Below are positions 23,667-46,500 of a stretch of DNA of 64,000 nt, one piece after another. Under the pieces are notes generated by a model. The model searched no databases, had not been told where the DNA came from, and was given only the letters and a program-made list of their open reading frames with translations. Source of the DNA: Sciurus carolinensis (taxonomy: Eukaryota; Chordata; Mammalia; Rodentia; Sciuridae). Numbering within the stretch: the first letter of the stretch is position 1; each line of letters opens with the position of its first letter. Location: contig NC_062232.1 of the NCBI RefSeq assembly GCF_902686445.1, positions 69,333,440-69,397,439 of the forward strand. The letters run 5' to 3'. The position numbers and the translations under genes were made by a program.

Positions 23667-23672
23667 TTCACT
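23667..23672. repeat. Target-site duplication, left copy (TTCACT)
   Basis: TTCACT lies immediately left of the LTR and again at 29407-29412. A 6-bp duplication is typical of betaretrovirus-like ERV2 insertions. Confidence 0.95.
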
Positions 23673-24064
23673 TGTCCGGCCCGCGGGACATCAAAGCAGG
23701 ACAGCAAACCTAAGAGAGAAGAAATGAAGGGACAAGAGACACAGGGAGTGACAGCAAGACAGGAATTCTGATCAAGCTGCAAATTTTTATTGTTCTCATG
23801 GGTATTTATGCTGAGGGAATGAAGAGTATGACGAGGTGCAGGCTGGTTGGCTGTGTTCTTCTATTGGGCTCCTAATAGGGTGCAAGTTCGCACTGGCGGG
23901 AAGGTGAGGTTCGCGCCGGTGGGAAGGTGAAGTCCCGGAAGAGAAGCCGTGGGCACCATAGGCGCCATACTGTCAGAATTATCAGCCAGGAGTGGGGGAG
24001 GGGCGCTGCTGCTTATTGTAAAGGTCAGAATGTTCTCAGAATGAGAACTTCTTGGTCCCTGACA
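23673..24064 (-). mobile_element. 3' LTR of the provirus
   Basis: 392 bases; minus-strand copy begins TGTCAGGGACCAAGAAG and ends GGACA. AATAAAAATTTGCAG (minus strand, near 23789) is the probable polyadenylation signal. It has lost one base near its right-hand terminus (TGTCCGG where the other copy has TGTCCTGG). Confidence 0.95.
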
Positions 24065-24078
24065 TTTCCCCCTTTCTT
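24065..24078 (-). other. Polypurine tract
   Basis: Minus strand reads AAGAAAGGGGGAAA immediately before the 3' LTR, the expected plus-strand primer of reverse transcription. Confidence 0.9.
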
Positions 24079-24185: not shown

Positions 24186-24345
24186 ACAATCCCTCGGGAA
24201 CTGTGCCTGTCTTAGGTTGTCCGTGGCAGAGCAACATCCTTACCCGTCATTGGATAATGAGGCTCTAGCCCTCATTTCCTGTCTTAGGTTGGTATGAGCT
24301 ATCACCAATCTTACCCGTCATTGGCTGTCCAGTTCAGCTCACAGG
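24186..24345 (-). promoter_or_regulatory. Constitutive transport element (CTE), type-D retrovirus type
   Basis: Between the TM stop and the 3' LTR lie two direct copies, about 71-72 bases apart, of a paired motif. On the minus strand each has CCAATGACGGGTAAG (24310-24324 and 24239-24253) followed by ACCTAAGACAGG (within 24278-24292 and 24206-24218). Outer arms can pair: GAACTG at 24330-24335 with CAGTTC at 24198-24203. This two-fold arrangement and these sequences match the CTE of Mason-Pfizer-type viruses, whose two internal loops bind the host export factor NXF1 (TAP) and send intron-containing RNA to the cytoplasm. Seen: the four motifs and spacing. Known: CTE function. Inferred: that this copy would still bind NXF1. 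Confidence 0.85.
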
Positions 24346-25808
24346 GGTGATGGTTTTTGAAGATCACCATCGTGATCCATCATCTCCAGTCGATGGTAAT
24401 GAACCTGAATAGGTTTCGCCTGTATAGCCTCGATTTGAGCTCTAAGAAAAGCCATGATCTTGTTGAATATCAAAGGACCTATAGATACGATAAGCAGCAA
24501 GCAGAGGAGGGGACCTAGGAAGGGAAGGAGATAGGGAAGGAGTCCACTGAATCCAGTCCATAGTGAATTATCAGCCAGTGCTCGTCGGCATTTTTCTAAG
24601 TCTTCCTGCAGCTGTTTGATCTTGTCCTTAACAAATCCTGACTTGTTGGCATAGAAACAGCATTTTTCCTGCAAAGCCAGACAAATGCCTCCCTGTTCGG
24701 CAGTTAGAAGGTCTAAACCTCTCCTATTTTGTAGGACCACTTCTGCTAAGGAATCCACCTGATCTTGAAGATCTTGTATGGTGCTTGAGAGTATCTGTAC
24801 ATCAGAAATCAATTGTCTGGATATGATAGAAGCTACCTGAGCAGGATAGACAGCAATAACTTTAGAGGATGTGGCGGGCAAATGAACCCAAAGCAAGGGG
24901 CAACCTTTATTTTTAAAATATGGATCCCGCTGCCAGAATAGTCTCGTGGGTGTATGAGGGGTGTGTAATATAACCAAAACCAAAGGAAGGTTATAAGATA
25001 TTTGTGTAATGAATTGTTGAGCAATGGCTTCTGTGACTTGAATTAATGCTTGCCGCGCCTCAGGAGTAAGCTCTCGAGGAGAAGAAGGGTCAGAATCTCC
25101 CCTTAAAATATCATTAAGAGGCAAAAGCACATAGGTGGGTAGTTTTAAATATGGTCTTAGCCATTGGATATCCCCTAGTAATTTTTGGAAATCGTTAAGA
25201 GTATGGAGATGGTCCACACGCAATTGTATATTAGGGATTTGAATTTGATTAGTTTGAAGTTTGAGGCCCAAGTAGGTGTAGGGGTCCTGTGTCTGAACCT
25301 TATCAGGGGCTATCTGAAGTCCCAAGGTAGTAAGGGCTTTATAGAGATCCAAATAACAATTGTTAAGATCATAGGTATTAGGTGCAGCGATTAACAAATC
25401 ATCCATATAATGTAATATATAAACTTGTGGCCACCGCTCTCTCACAGGGTCTACTGCTTGAGCAACATATTTTTTGCAAAGACTAGGTCTGTTAGCCATA
25501 CCCTGGGGAAGGATCTTCCATTGAAATCTTTGCATAGGACCCTGAAAATTGATGCGGGGGAGGCTGAAAGCAAAATAGGGTCTGTCCTCAGGATGTAAAG
25601 GAATAGTAAAAAAGCAATCTTTTAAGTCGATGACCATTTTATAATAGTCCCTAGGAATAGCTACCGGTGTAGGGATGTGGCTGTAATGCCTCCATCGGGC
25701 GCATAACCTTATTGATAGCGCGCAAATCCTGTAAAAGGCGCCATTTGCCTGATTTCTTCTTAATAACAAAAATAGGAGTGTTCCAGGGTGAGGTTGAGGG
25801 TTCCACAT
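24339..25808 (-). pseudogene. pol reverse transcriptase fused in frame to env TM
   Basis: An open 489-codon frame. From its first ATG to about residue 43 it is out of frame with pol. After a frameshift near 25675-25690 it reads true reverse transcriptase: [17 protein letters not shown], the catalytic HYMDDLL (YMDD at 25398-25409), thumb and connection. Near 24810-24830 it passes without a stop into env TM: a coiled region, the [10 protein letters not shown] segment, a CX6CC motif, a membrane anchor ([17 protein letters not shown]) and a cytoplasmic tail. RNase H, integrase, SU, the SU/TM cleavage site and the fusion peptide are gone. Upstream pol is also cut by a TAG at 25822-25824. No natural start would give pure RT-TM without the frameshifted lead, and function is unproven. 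Confidence 0.9.
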
Positions 25809-25952: not shown

Positions 25953-26765
25953 CTAAAAATCCAAATACCCAAGTCCAAATTTGTCTGTTTTTTGTATGGG
26001 CTGTACAGGCTCAACCTGTCCTTGTCCTAGCCTCCCAAGGCCTGTACCAGGGATAAAGCCCATACGAAGCATTTGATGAGTGACTAAAGAGTCGGGACTA
26101 GCAAGAATAACTTTCATTTGGCTTAGAATGTCTCGTCCCCAAAGGTTGACAGGGAGATCAGGAACAACGAAGGGGGTAACAGTTCCTTTATTTCCTGTGT
26201 TATCTTTTGTGTCAGTCCGATTGAGCACCCTGGAGCTAACTAAGGGGTTTTTTGATTGCCCTATTCCTTTAAGGTCAGTTAGTGATGAGGTGAGGGGCCA
26301 TTCTGATGGCCAATATTTTTGAGAAATAACTGTGGCATCCGCACCAGTATCTAGGATCCCTTGGAATTTCTTTCCTTCAATAAATAAGGTAAGAGTGAGT
26401 CTTTTGTGGGAGATAGGTTGGACCCAATACACATCAGAGGAACCTAAAGAGACTGTGTTTCGTGGTGAATTTTGGGTGGCAGGAGTGTTTCCTGAATTGA
26501 GGGGAAGGAGTATTAATTGTGCAATTCTTGTTCCTGCAGGGATGGCCGCTACTCCGTTAATAGCTGTAGCCCGTATTTTAATTTCTCCAGTGTAATCATT
26601 ATCAATGATGCCAGGGAAGACCTGAACACCTTGTAAGGTGGTAGAAGCTCTCCCAAGAATAAGAGCACACATATGAGGTGGAGGGGGGCCTACAACCCCA
26701 GTGGGTATTATTTGGGGTCCTTGTATAGAGTCTAATATTGTATCGATGGAGGCACAGAGGTCCAA
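25953..26765 (-). CDS. pro: Retroviral dUTPase-protease with G-patch (pro), open frame
   Basis: About 270 codons open from the LDLCAS motif (the first codon here is TTG; the frame enters from the gag overlap) to the stop at 25953. In order: dUTPase with LDLCAS, the [12 protein letters not shown] box and a [12 protein letters not shown] box (residues about 1-115); aspartic protease with [11 protein letters not shown] and the WGRDIL box (about 130-215); and a glycine-rich G-patch ([19 protein letters not shown], about 233-251). This dUTPase-protease-G-patch order is typical of betaretroviruses. It would be made only by -1 frameshifting out of gag, and gag here is broken, so expression by the viral route is unlikely. 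Why this frame stayed open while gag and pol broke may be chance and youth. Confidence 0.85.
25956..25962 (-). promoter_or_regulatory. pro-pol frameshift site (GGATTTT) before the pro stop
   Basis: Minus strand reads GGATTTT directly followed by the pro stop TAG. This is the form of slippery site used at pro-pol junctions in some betaretroviruses (the GGAUUU-type heptamer of MMTV). The -1 frame continues into pol ([20 protein letters not shown]). Confidence 0.65.
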
Positions 26766-28854
26766 TCCTGCGCTGCCTGGGGTAGTGCGTTGGAGGGAGG
26801 TGATTGTGGAGAAGGACAGGGGACCTGGATTGGGTTGGGAGTCTGAGAGGGAACAAACCTTATTGCCCCTGGGTTTGTTCTGGGGGTGGTCGGGGCCAGG
26901 GGCTGGCCCCGAGAGGAGTTTCCCGAGAAGTTAGAGGGAATAGGCTGTCCAAGGGCATTGGTCTTGGATCTACACTCCTTGGCCCAGTGGCGACCTTTAC
27001 CACATTTAGGGCAAAGGGTGAGCGGAGGTGGTTTAGCCCCTGTTTGAGGAGATATGGGTCCTTGACCCAGTCTCCCTGTTGGGCAGTCTCGCACAAAATG
27101 GCCAGGTTGTTTGCAAGTAAAGCAAGTACGTGGGCCAGGGTTGTGAAGGGGCTTGGTGAAGGCGGCGTCAATGGCGAGACCCATGGCATGGGCTGTTCCT
27201 ACCCCGGCACACAGCCTAATGAAGTCAGAAAGGTCCCCTTTATCTTTATGGGGCCGAAGAACATCTTGACATATCGGGTTGGCATTTTCAAAGGCAAGAT
27301 ATTTTACAAAGGAGCTCTCATTTTCACTTGGTCCAAGTAAGTGCTCCACAGTTAGATTAAGCCGGGCAACAAAGTCACTGTAAGGCTCGTCAGGACCCTG
27401 ACGAATTTTTGCTAGGGAGGTGGTGGCCGAGCCCTTTTGAGGGAACCGTCTCCAAGTGTGCAAACCAGCAGTTTGAACCTGTGCTAGGAGCCCAGTAGGG
27501 AAGCGCGCCTGTTTAGGGTTAGTATCAAATGGCGCATTACCCACTAGTTTAACATAGGTCCAGAATTTAGAGGAAGCCTTGGTTGAATTTTTTGAGCAGT
27601 TTCCCGACAATATTCCTTAAAATCTGCATTCCATAACAGGAAGTCACCCGCACTGAGGGTGGCTTGGGCCAAAAATTTCCAATCGTTAAGGGTGAGCCAT
27701 TGTGTACTATGGTTCTCTAGCAAGGCCAGTGTATAAGGTGCAGTGGGGCCATACTGTGTACAAGCCTTTTTAAGTCTTTCAAGAAAGCGGAGGCTCAGCC
27801 TTTTATAAGAACCAAGGACTCCACTCTGTCCAGAGGTGGGCTCCTCCTCATCCCCTGATTCCTGGTCCCCCTCTTGTTCTCTCTCTGGTTCTACCTCTTG
27901 TTCCTCCCCTGATTCCTCTTCCTGACTTCCTTTTAAATTCTCTGCCTCAGTTTGGGGGGGCTGATCTGCTTGACTGCAAGTGACTGGAAAGGCAAGAACA
28001 GGCTGACCACGTGGCTTCACCTTACGAGTATTAAGGGGTTTGGAGCCAGTTTGTGTTAACTCCGTGCCCAAGGCCAGTGAGCGAAGTTCGGCATCAAGGG
28101 CCTTTAGTTCTTTTAAAAGTTGGATTTATTCCCACCTATGTTGGAGAGACTTGCGTAAAGGGGTTAGATTAGGCAAGGGAAGCGGGGAAAAAATGTCTGG
28201 GGGGGGGGCAGTAGGTCCCTGAAGGGCCGGAGCACAAAAGGCAGGGGGTATATAAGAGGGAGATGGATTTTTAAGAGGTGGCAGGTCTGGAGAATGGTAT
28301 CGAGCCGCTACCTCCTCCAGGGTAGCCTCATCCTCTGGGGTCAACTCACCATGGGGATTTAAAACCGGATAAATCTTAGGGGGATTTTTAGGGGACTCTT
28401 TTGGTAAGGTGGGGTCTGGGAGGTTTCCGGGGTCTGGGAGGGTTCCAGGGTCCTGAGAAGGCTGAGTAGGGGGCATTTGAATACTAACTGAAGGGCATGC
28501 CGAGGGGGGGCGAGAGGTGGATTGCATTGCCTGCTCCCCAATTTTTACAAGTTTTAAAGTACCACTGTCAAAGGGTGAACTTTTAAGAATCTCATTAATT
28601 AAATTTTAATAAGAAAAGGCAGTGATGGGCACCTTTTGAGGACCAAAAGTCTCATAATAACCTTTGAGGCAGTCTCCTACTCTGAGCCACCTTTTACCAT
28701 CAATTGACCCCTCGAGGGGAAACCAAGGACACAAATCCTCTATGTATGAAAAGAATGATCATAAATCCTTTTTCTTAACACGCGCTCCCCGAGTCTTGAG
28801 GGCCTCCTTGAGACCCGTCAGAAACAAATCATGTGACGAAACTGCTTGTCCCAT
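26732..28854 (-). pseudogene. gag: Betaretroviral gag, broken
   Basis: Starts at ATG 28854 with MGQAVS, a myristoylation-type matrix start, about 140 bases after the primer site. In-frame stops lie at 28759-28761 (codon 32), 28606-28608 and 28126-28128, and an indel in an A run near 27586-27595 shifts the frame. Open pieces are 28126-28527 (proline-rich linker), 27544-28071 (Glu-rich segment, then capsid start) and 26732-27610 (capsid end and nucleocapsid). The last holds two zinc knuckles, CFTCKQPGHFVRDC and CPKCGKGRHWAKEC, and a Pro-rich tail. The end overlaps pro in the -1 frame, as in betaretroviruses; I found no clear gag-pro slippery heptamer. Particle formation is not possible from this copy. 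Confidence 0.9.
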
Positions 28855-28993: not shown

Positions 28994-29011
28994 CAACCAC
29001 GTTGGGCGCCA
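28994..29011 (-). other. Primer-binding site, tRNA-Lys1,2 type
   Basis: Minus strand begins TGGCGCCCAACGTGG two bases after the 5' LTR, matching the first 15 of 18 bases complementary to tRNA-Lys1,2; the last three differ. Type-D viruses such as MPMV use this primer. Confidence 0.9.
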
Positions 29012-29013
29012 AC

Positions 29014-29406
29014 TGTCCTGGCCCGCGGGACATCAACGCAGGACAGCAAACCTAGGAGAGAAGGAATGAAGGGACAAGAGACACAGGGAGTGACAGCAAG
29101 ACAGGAATTCTGATCAAGCTGCAAATTTTTATTGTTCTCACGGGTATTTATGCTGAGGGAATGAAGAGTATGACGAGGTGCAGGCTGATTGGCTGTGTTC
29201 TTCTATTGGGCTCCTGATAGGGTGCAAGTTCGCGCTGGCGGGAAGGTGAGGTTCGCGCCGGTGGGAAGGTGAAGTCCCGGAAGAGAAGCCGTGGGCGCCA
29301 TAGGCGCCATACTGTCAGAATTATCAGCCAGGAGTGGGGGAGGGGCGCTGCTGCTCTTTGTAAAGGTCAGAATGTTCTCAGAATGAGAACTTCTTGGTCC
29401 CTGACA
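29014..29406 (-). mobile_element. 5' LTR of the provirus
   Basis: 393 bases, about 97% identical to the 3' LTR. AATAAAAATTTGCAG on the minus strand (near 29131) is the probable polyadenylation signal. Several differences from the 3' LTR are at CpG sites where this copy keeps the CG, so it looks like the less decayed copy. Confidence 0.95.
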
Positions 29407-29412
29407 TTCACT
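29407..29412. repeat. Target-site duplication, right copy (TTCACT)
   Basis: Exact partner of 23667-23672. Confidence 0.95.
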
Positions 29413-30013: not shown

Positions 30014-31115
<1,102 letters not shown>

Positions 31116-43589: not shown

Positions 43590-46500
43590 TAAAACATCTA
43601 TTTTTATGGTTGGGATTTTAAAATGCCCCCAGTGGTGCACGTATTGATCACATATTGATGAATTTGTTCTTAAAAGAGCAGCGTTCAGAGTTGTGGATTT
43701 TGGAAGGGATTGGATCATAAAGGCCCTAACCTCATGAGTGGATTAATTCATCCATTGATTCATTACTTAATGTGCTATTGGGAGGTGGTTGAAACTTTAG
43801 GAGGTAGGACCAAGTTGATGGAAGTAGATTATTGGGGGCATCCTCTTGAAGGATATATTTTGTTTTCAGCACTCCTTCTCCTCTCTCTGCTTCCTGGTCA
43901 CCTTTCCTTCTCCTTCTTGCCTCCTCCTCCTTCTCCTTATTCTTTTCTCTCTCTTTCTCTTTCTCCTTCCTGATCACCATGAGATGAGTTGGTTTGCTCC
44001 ACCATATATTCTCCACCAAAAATAATGGGCCCAAATGACCATTGACTCAAACTTCTGAAACTATGAACCAAAATAAATCTTTCCTATTTTTAAGGGCTTT
44101 TTTTTTTTTTTTCTCAGCTCTTATCACAATGACAAAAGCTGAATAACAGAAACTGGGTGCCCTAAATGGAACCATGATTGTGATATATTGAACAATATGG
44201 TTTAGAAGCTTTTGGAATTGGTTTATAGAAGTTTGGAAAAGTTTAGAGAAAACAGATTAAGAGAAACCTTAGAATGCTGAAAACCAGATTGTAGAAAATA
44301 AATGCTGTGCATATGAAGTTTCAGTTAGAAATGAGGAGTTTACTGGGAATTGGACTAGAGGCCATTCATACTACATCCTGGCAAAGAACTTGCCTTCATT
44401 TTGTCTATGTCCTGAGACTTTTCAGAGACTGTGCTTAAAGGGAATAGCCTAATTAATCTGGTAGAGAAAACTTCAAAGCAGAATAGCATTCAGAATTGGC
44501 ATGGGCATGTGCATTGGTGACTTCATTAAGTTGAATATATAGTGAGAACGGGGAACAAAAATCAAAAGGGAAAGATTTGAAAAACTTGCAGTTTGGCCAG
44601 AAAAAGATGTATTTAAATGGGACCAAGAAGGGCGTGTTTACTAAATAGATTAGTGTCATTAAAAAGAAGTCAAGTATCCAGCACTAGGACATTAGGAAAG
44701 AAGTCTTGAGGGCATTGTAGGAATTGACTAGAACCCCACCCACTGAAATTTCAATTAGATAAAAGTAAAAACTTGTTTGAAAGACTTTATTTTGAGAAGA
44801 TAAGCCCTATACCCTTGTCACACAGGGATACCAAAGCAATTGTTTTCCTGATATGCTATGTGTGATCCCATTTTCAACTATTCAGTCAGTCAGAGGTCAC
44901 TGAAGCCGTAGTCCAGGGGGGTCCCATTACTGCTCAAATCAGTGGTTGATCTGGACATTGCTCACAAGATGCTGGTTTCATAGGTGTCCTGGCCCGCAGG
45001 ACATCAACGAGGACTGCGAACCTAAAAGAGAAGGAATTAAAGGGACAAGAGACGCAGGGAGTGACAGCAAGACAGGAATTCTGATCAAGCTGCAAATTTT
45101 TATTGTTCACACGGGTATTTATGCTGAGGGAATGAAGAGTATGACGAGGTGCAGGCTGGTTGGCTGCGTTCTTCTGCTGGGCTCCTGATAGGGTGCAAGT
45201 TCCCACCAGCAGGAAGGTGAGATCCCGGAAGAGAAGCAGGGACAGCGCCATAGGTGCCATTTTGTCAGAACTATCAGCCAGGAGTGGGGAAGGACGCTGC
45301 TGCTTATTGTAAAGGTCAGAACGTTCTCAGAATGAGAACTTTTTCTTGGTCCCTGACACTTAGGCACACAAAATTCAAGATTTGTAGGGTTGTGGTGTCT
45401 TCCACTGAGATTCCAAAGGGCAGTCAGAGTAGTTAGGCAGTATGTGATAGTGTCAGAGATTCTTGCTGCCTCCTGCATAGAAAAGGATCAGTAAACCGCA
45501 AGGGGGTGTAAACCAGCTGAGAAAAAATAATCAGAAATTATAAAAATAAAATAAGGACTCATTTATTAGTTGAAAGTGGGGGCAAGGTGTGTGACCACCT
45601 TTGATGGAGACTGGATCTGACAATAAAATGGAGTCTGAGCAGTCATTTATATGGGCAGGTACACCAGAGGGATTCAGTTTGAAGAACTTCTTCAGGAAAT
45701 CAGGAAGAAGATGGGAAAAATAAGTTGTTTGGGGCTTAGCAGGTTGCATGCACCTCTTTTCTACCTCTGGGAAGCTGCGTTTGAATCTAGGGACGTCTGA
45801 GCCAAGGCAGGGTGTTGGTATAATCGGAGCAGTCTCAATCTGTGGAATTTCACTGGGAGTTCCCAGAAAAGCAACCCTCCTGCCTTGTGATGGCTCAAAC
45901 AAATCTATGATTCATACACAACCTCCAACGAGCAATGTTGCGAAAAGCACTTGAGATGGTGGTGTGTGAAGCTATGAATATGAAGCTCAAGTTTCAAAAG
46001 AAATCCCAGGAAGTTAGAAATGCCAAGAATGTAGAACGTCTGCCAAGGAAAGTCACATACAACTAGTAAATCCAGTCCAAGTGAGTAGTTATGTGGGCTG
46101 TAGCCAGGAAGACCATAAAAGTGGGGCAGTCTAAGTCTTTTGGAGATCATATCCCAGGACAACTTGCTCCAGATGCCTGACATGGGACTAGAAGATGTAA
46201 CATTTTCCTTGCTAAGATTCAGTTTTGCTTTGGTTCCATCTCTTTCTGTGACTCCATTGCCCCTTTGGGAATGGGAAATTTTTACCCTAGGCTTGTCTCA
46301 CCATTCTGTTGGGAGTATTAAATTTGGTTTTCATTTTTTTTTTTTTTTTAATTTTACTTTTACAGGGGCTCACAAGTAAGAGTTGCCTTGAGTCTCTGAG
46401 AAGACTTTGTATTTGGATTTTTGACTAAGAATAGAACTGTTAAAATTTTTTGATACAAGATGAATTCATTTTGCATTGTGAGATGGGCATGAGCTTTTGG

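What the first reader, a model, noticed from the sequence alone, without database searches (positions are those of the whole stretch)
24186..24345. A well-preserved type-D constitutive transport element in a squirrel-type ERV
Four motif blocks, CCAATGACGGGTAAG and ACCTAAGACAGG, each present twice about 71-72 bases apart with pairing outer arms, lie exactly between env and the 3' LTR. In MPMV-type viruses these are the two NXF1 (TAP)-binding loops that export unspliced RNA. Seen here: the motifs, their spacing, and 15 of 15 bases identical between the two copies of the first motif. The surrounding gag and pol are broken, yet the element is almost unchanged. Whether it still exports RNA, or has been spread or co-opted in this genome, is inference.
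Basis: partly seen in the sequence, partly recalled or inferred. Interest (0 to 1): 0.78.

Follow-up and report, generated by a model that had tools for sequence, protein, structure and literature searches.

The report
Squirrel retroviruses' shared RNA export element
A retrovirus relic in a grey squirrel genome carries a short RNA element of the kind that lets unspliced RNA leave the nucleus, and close copies of it sit in other, quite different retrovirus families of the same genome, as if passed between them.

Summary
[quoted passage not shown] All four motif blocks are exact, and its inner half matches the published SRV-1 half-CTE. The core is 24204-24327; alone it folds as one hairpin with two equal 6x6 internal loops. 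The 160 nt given fold otherwise.

"Well-preserved" holds for the loops only: the middle stem is weaker than in all 41 sister copies examined, and intact motifs at this insertion age need no selection (P about 0.43).

The genome holds 1,089 exact inner half-CTEs (control 0). The 100 places listed fall into six types whose stems differ yet pair. Outside the motifs the window type's CTE is 83-88% identical to that of a family (A3/D) with unrelated flanks and distant pol, and similarity stops at the element's edges. Best reading: a roughly 120-nt cassette passed between retroviral families by recombination. NXF1 binding and any host use are untested.

The parts
24204..24327 (-). core CTE: hairpin with two 6x6 internal loops
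   Evidence: minimum-energy fold of these 124 nt; mean pair probability 0.83 inner, 0.93 outer
24310..24324 (-). motif 1, outer loop 5' strand (1a)
24278..24289 (-). motif 2, inner loop 5' strand (2a)
24254..24277 (-). apical stem and loop
   Evidence: the only spacer whose shuffling always weakened the hairpin (0 of 60 shuffles as strong)
24239..24253 (-). motif 1, inner loop 3' strand (1b)
24206..24217 (-). motif 2, outer loop 3' strand (2b)
24339..25808 (-). 489-codon ORF: reverse transcriptase piece fused in frame to env TM (fusion near 24823)
25953..26765 (-). dUTPase-protease-G-patch ORF
26732..28527 (-). gag remains, capsid split over two reading frames
29014..29406 (-). 5' LTR; 6-bp target duplication at 29407-29412
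23673..24064 (-). 3' LTR; 6-bp target duplication at 23667-23672
28997..29011 (-). primer binding site, Lys1,2-like (tRNA recalled)
24065..24078 (-). polypurine tract

Best explanation
It is a type D CTE. In unspliced proviral RNA it folds into a hairpin whose two equal internal loops each offer an AAGACA strand to one NXF1-NXT1 heterodimer, so intron-containing RNA is exported without a viral adaptor (loops and fold of the core shown here; binding and export inferred from SRV-1/MPMV). In this genome such elements sit in over a thousand places and in several class II ERV families. The window's family, a type D lineage with SRV-like TM, has a CTE that is close kin of the CTE of another endogenous family (A3/D); the 120-nt cassette passed between families by recombination, more likely from A3/D into the type D lineage (direction tentative). 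This one copy is internally deleted and its CTE is probably weaker than its sisters'.
For: Motifs exact. SRV-1 half-CTE arms: 14 of 14 and 15 of 16 bases; as duplexes both form the same 6x6 loop. Core fold; 1 of 500 spacer shuffles reaches both loop probabilities. 1,089 exact inner halves, control 0. Among the 100 places listed, stems of six types differ but pair: apical own means -6.2 to -10.4, swapped -2.6 to -6.0; middle -13.5 to -16.6, swapped -7.2 to -11.0 kcal/mol; both loops above 0.5 in 88 of 100 cores. Transfer: arms outside motifs A1-A3 0.88, A1-D 0.83 with flanks at 0.40-0.50 (shuffled baseline 0.47); best upstream match of any of 12 A3/D copies to any of 41 A1 copies 0.53; no TM, LTR or gag match in 7 loci of other types; window-D RT 46%. 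Yardstick: within A3/D the arms (0.79) differ more than the integrase (88% aa), yet A1-A3 arms are at 0.88.
Against: Core stability alone is ordinary (z -1.19; 22 of 200 shuffles as stable). With 16 nt or more of flank on both sides the outer loop of this copy is lost, and at 50 nt the sisters' median falls to 0.08 too. In the hairpin-only test of the 160 nt, middle-stem spacers of this copy do no better than shuffles (38 and 28 of 60), and 64 of 200 all-spacer shuffles still form both loops. Some swapped middle arms pair as well as own ones (best swapped -18.0). Integrase: A3 and D are 64-66% identical to SRV-5, closer than to the stand-in P0001 (55 and 49%), so P0001 overstates the distance. 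RT comes from one D copy, integrase of A3 from one copy. NXF1 binding untested.
Confidence: 0.7

Rival explanations
1. Plain descent with constraint: these families inherited one CTE from a common class II ancestor, and selection kept it while everything around it diverged.
For: All types examined keep the CTE at the same place, before the purine tract. A1, A3, D and B share part of the middle arms (A1-B 0.73-0.74 in those arms). Integrase of A3/D is 64-66% identical to SRV-5.
Against: Arms are free to change as long as they pair (B, C and E against A1: 0.66, 0.57, 0.56). Within A3/D the arms changed more than the integrase, yet A1 and A3 share 0.88 of them. RT groups D with E (83/78), CTE groups D with A1.
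Confidence: 0.25
2. Chance motif repeats with no structure.
For: The 160-nt fold is no more stable than shuffles (z -0.67). The inner pattern turns up in 2 phage contigs of the viral collection by chance.
Against: Match to the independent SRV-1 sequence, 1,089 genome matches against 0 for the reversed pattern, covarying stems.
Confidence: 0.02
3. The CTE has been co-opted by the squirrel and is kept by selection at this locus.
For: Loop motifs intact after millions of years.
Against: Intact motifs are expected with P about 0.43 without selection; the middle stem is weaker than in 41 of 41 sisters; the closest copies lie in proviral remains. Host transcripts could not be examined.
Confidence: 0.03

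Closest known systems
CTE of simian type D retroviruses (SRV-1, MPMV)
   Same: Place after env and before the 3' LTR; two-fold symmetric hairpin; AAGACA loop strand; 14 of 14 and 15 of 16 bases of the SRV-1 half around the loop.
   Different: One loop letter (AAUGAC for AAAGAC), in both loops; stem letters outside the loops differ (A1 copies match the known SRV-1 arm letters in 9.9 of 23 on average by a crude count).
SERV-K/MER11 transport element of macaque HML-2 (PMC11379458, passages read)
   Same: An export element gained by recombination between ERV lineages; shared pol-env deletions among copies.
   Different: About 1000 bp and said to lack clear homology to known elements; here the cassette is the type D CTE itself, about 120 nt, with sharp edges.
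Tap-binding motifs of bat group VII betaretroviruses (PMC3621094, passages read)
   Same: CTE-type motifs in endogenous betaretroviruses; authors discuss gain of a CTE along with env.
Gunnison's prairie dog retrovirus and ERV-PDRV.1 (PMC7354474, outline and passages read)
   Same: Type D betaretroviruses of Sciuridae.
   Different: GPDRV has a tRNA-Gln primer site; none of 8 published primers matches this provirus clearly better than shuffled ones. The words transport element and CTE do not occur in the paper.

Membership tests
Type D CTE | lies between env and the 3' LTR | tested here: met
Type D CTE | two-fold symmetric hairpin with two internal loops | tested here: met
   met by the 124-nt core and by 88 of 100 other copies' cores; in wider context this copy loses the outer loop
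Type D CTE | conserved AAGACA in each loop (PMC4330393) | tested here: met
   both loops
Type D CTE | sequence kinship with a proven CTE | tested here: met
   SRV-1 half
Type D CTE | binds NXF1-NXT1 and exports unspliced RNA | not testable with these tools
   needs gel shift and reporter
Type D betaretrovirus | betaretroviral gag-dUTPase-pro-pol with TLV_coat-type TM | tested here: met
Type D betaretrovirus | 6-bp target duplication and Lys1,2 primer site | tested here: met
   that these are typical is recalled
Any Rfam family | match at gathering score at this place | tested here: not met
   only weak hits to unrelated families
CTE-related element of mouse IAP; CTE in an intron of NXF1 | sequence kinship | not tested
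   no sequence at hand; known from citations

The most novel reading that the evidence does not exclude
The type D CTE travels as a discrete RNA cassette of about 120 nt between unrelated retroviral families. The squirrel genome, with 1,089 exact NXF1-type half-elements and at least six stem types, holds the record of it: a type D lineage carrying the CTE of a resident endogenous family. Type D viruses could thus take their export signal from endogenous elements, which would account for the CTE of simian type D viruses.
Probability: 0.55. Interest if true: 0.8.

Novelty: new member of a known kind. Interest (0 to 1): 0.6.

Why it matters
The element is of a known kind. Its setting is what I found in none of my paper searches: a large natural set of CTEs with covarying stems in one genome, and signs that the cassette moves between ERV families. 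That would make the origin of the simian type D CTE directly testable (a 2001 paper argues for a cellular origin; I saw only its title, in a reference list; it is not held). It also offers a comparative data set for an RNA that no Rfam family matched here.

Tried and rejected
Rfam at gathering score and at E up to 10: nothing relevant. Pattern scan of viral contigs: two contigs that read as phage coding sequence. Protein-guided scan of viral contigs: no relative. Kinship with the prairie dog viruses: not supported. The 160-nt fold as support: rejected, it shows the inner loop only. Test of energy parameter sets: void, all sets gave the same numbers, so loading them had no effect. Host co-option: no support. 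Intact motifs as a sign of selection: rejected by the LTR clock. Rows dropped: RT was found in the pieces of D and E only, not in those of A3, B and C; E copy L142 was left out of the RT tree because its match is split over two frames; in the integrase comparison A3 copies L137 and L143 gave no match and the C copy matched over 35 residues only, so they were not used.

Full report
What is in the window. The window comes from a grey squirrel genome or one indistinguishable from it. The ORF 30367-31086, a NAXE (YjeF_N) retrocopy next to the 5' LTR, is 100% identical over its length to a Sciurus carolinensis protein, and contig C1 of the window's genome has the same length, 208,993,527 bases, as the contig listed for another S. 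carolinensis NAXE protein. SINE-like repeats fit a squirrel (SINE names recalled). On the minus strand lies a provirus of 5,734 bases, 29406 to 23673, with two LTRs that agree in 384 of 395 columns with one gap, a 6-bp target duplication, a polypurine tract and a Lys1,2-like primer site (tRNA recalled). It has gag p24, zinc knuckles, dUTPase, protease, G-patch and RT domains, which match solved retroviral protease, dUTPase, Gag, polymerase and envelope chains. Gag p24 is split over two reading frames, RT over two. The 489-codon ORF taken for env is RT fused in frame to the TM subunit near 24823; the rest of pol and the SU part are absent. TM is 77-79% identical to the env proteins of SRV-1, -4 and -5. 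RT is 74% identical to an unnamed protein (P0001), 67% to the Desmodus ERV and 60% to SRV-5.

The observation. Both motifs occur twice, exact, 71 and 72 bases apart, and nowhere else in the window within the mismatches allowed. Of exact 14-mer direct repeats 31-120 bases apart the whole window has five runs; two are these motifs. An outside yardstick is the pair of primers for the SRV-1 half-CTE in PMC4330393 (passages read): the window matches 14 of 14 bases of one arm and 15 of 16 of the other. That paper says each half carries a conserved AAGACA in its internal loop and takes one Tap-p15. As duplexes the SRV-1 arms and the window's arms form the same 6x6 loop beside ACCU/GGGU. The one differing base is in the other loop strand, AAAGAC in SRV-1 and AAUGAC here, in both loops.

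Fold. The 160 nt fold at -44.8 kcal/mol with the inner loop only; the fold with both loops is 3.3 kcal/mol weaker. The core 24204-24327 alone folds into the expected hairpin. With the motif blocks fixed and the spacers shuffled, 1 of 500 controls reaches both observed loop probabilities (13 the inner, 11 the outer). In a coarser, hairpin-only test of the 160 nt, 8 of 200 shuffles were as stable and 64 of 200 formed both loops; shuffling the apical spacer alone never matched the original (0 of 60), but shuffling either middle arm did in 38 and 28 of 60 and either outer arm in 21 and 20 of 60. Total stability of the core is ordinary (z -1.19, 22 of 200 shuffles as stable). Flanks of 16 nt or more on both sides bring in a competing fold.

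Copies in the genome. The 160 nt gave 1,232 candidates in the window's own genome; the 40 that were scored all matched at 98-100%. The exact inner-half pattern occurs 1,089 times (536 and 553 on the two strands; reversed-pattern control 0). The 100 places that one search listed, on contigs C1-C3, were all read. By apical stem and flank they are 41 A1 (the window's type), 39 B, 11 A3, 5 E, 3 C and 1 D (thresholds mine). The pattern fixed only the inner motifs. In the outer half, free to vary, both cores are exact in 67 of 100, one in 27 and neither in 6.

Covariation. Stem sequences differ between types and pair within them. Apical arms: own means -6.2 to -10.4 kcal/mol, swapped between types -2.6 to -6.0. 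Middle arms: -13.5 to -16.6 against -7.2 to -11.0, though some single swaps do as well (best -18.0). Outer arms: -7.8 to -14.2 against -6.1 to -9.0, with no gain in D and almost none in A1. Both loops exceed probability 0.5 in 88 of 100 cores and in 81 of 100 with 30 nt of context. This points to selection on the structure while these families replicated, not to selection on the window's copy.

The window's copy. LTR divergence, 10 mismatches by BLAST or 12 in 392 columns by MAFFT (K2P 0.031), gives 0.85 expected changes in the 54 motif bases, P(no change) 0.43, and an age of 3.5-7.1 million years at assumed rates of 2.2-4.5e-9. The middle stem is weaker (-8.1 kcal/mol) than in all 41 A1 sisters (mean -13.6). 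Its 5' arm differs from 32 of them at two places, from 6 at three, from 1 at four; 2 have another length. The outer-loop probability of sisters is at or below the window's in 4, 4, 0, 0, 2 and 5 of 41 at 3, 10, 16, 20, 30 and 50 nt of context; at 50 nt the sisters' median is itself only 0.08, so the predictor, not only this copy, has trouble in long context.

A cassette shared between families. Of 30 loci around the best CTE matches (the window's own included), 30 have the TM piece upstream, 29 some LTR similarity downstream (35 nt to full length), and 9 the same RT-TM fusion, so the deleted form has propagated. The other types are different. In seven loci (one A3, two B, one C, one D, two E) nothing matched the window's TM, LTR or gag, while the CTE aligned in all seven: 89% A3, 88% D, 78-79% B, 73-75% C and E. 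A GP41-type TM ORF lies upstream in the B array and in C; the ORFs tested between integrase and CTE gave no env domain in A3 (3 ORFs), D (2), E (9) and the single B locus L129 (1). In all seven a purine-rich tract follows the CTE closely (read by eye). Outside the motifs CTE identity is 0.88 for A1-A3, 0.83 A1-D, 0.79 A3-D, 0.66 A1-B, 0.57 A1-C and 0.56 A1-E, against 0.47 for shuffled sequence (largest 0.54); the flanks of A1 against A3 and D are at 0.40-0.50. No A3 or D copy exceeds 0.53 upstream identity to any A1 copy; ungapped identity is near chance from 12 nt upstream, and downstream after a first 12 nt at 0.41.

Pol tells another story. RT of the window and of D are 46% identical. The RT tree joins the window with P0001 and the Desmodus ERV (100/98), and D with E (83/78, below the strong mark). 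Integrase pieces of A3 and D are 88% alike (84/86); they are 55% and 49% identical to P0001, the stand-in for the window's family, but 64% and 66% to SRV-5, so P0001 overstates the distance. Even so, within A3/D the arms differ more (0.79) than the integrase (88%), whereas A1 and A3 share 0.88 of the arms at far lower pol identity. Recombination of the cassette explains this better than descent. Direction is tentative: A1 arms are nearer to A3 and to D than these are to each other, and the flanks within A3 are more diverse than within A1, so A3/D looks like the donor side.

Mechanism. Shown here: position, loops, fold of the core, covariation, copy number, sharp-edged similarity. Inferred from work on SRV-1/MPMV (PMC4330393, PMC4330390, PMC10746203; passages read): direct recruitment of NXF1-NXT1 and export of unspliced RNA. 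Inferred without test: transfer by template switching between RNAs packaged together.

Literature. The listings showed no report that I could recognise of a CTE in a squirrel ERV; the library is open-access only. PMC3621094 (passages) reports Tap-binding motifs in bat group VII betaretroviruses and discusses gain of a CTE along with env. PMC11379458 (passages) reports another, longer transport element gained by recombination. PMC8775094 (passages) on simian endogenous retroviruses does not mention a CTE.

Noticed in passing
window 24339-25808 (-); L003-L032: RT fused in frame to env TM as one open frame of 489 codons; 9 of 30 loci (the window's own included) carry the same junction, so this internally deleted form has propagated.
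   Followed up: partly
window 44985-45358 (-): Solo LTR of the same family, 84.5% identical to the 3' LTR, with a 6-bp target duplication agreeing in 5 of 6 bases.
   Followed up: partly
window 30147-31086 (-): NAXE (ApoA-I binding protein) retrocopy just upstream of the provirus, annotated as a protein in S. carolinensis.
   Followed up: partly
G000:C2:73039852-73047922 (part in L135): Four type B half-CTEs at an exact spacing of 2,673 bases, in a tandem array whose units are about 98% alike.
   Followed up: partly
window 24310-24324 and 24239-24253 (-): The same letter (AAUGAC for AAAGAC) stands at symmetric places in both loops of this copy, while the outer loop strand reads AAAGAC in 31 of 39 type B copies.
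   Followed up: partly
L003-L032: Sister copies fall into two LTR groups, about 78% and mostly 87-95% identical to the window's LTR, with nearly the same CTE and TM.
   Followed up: no
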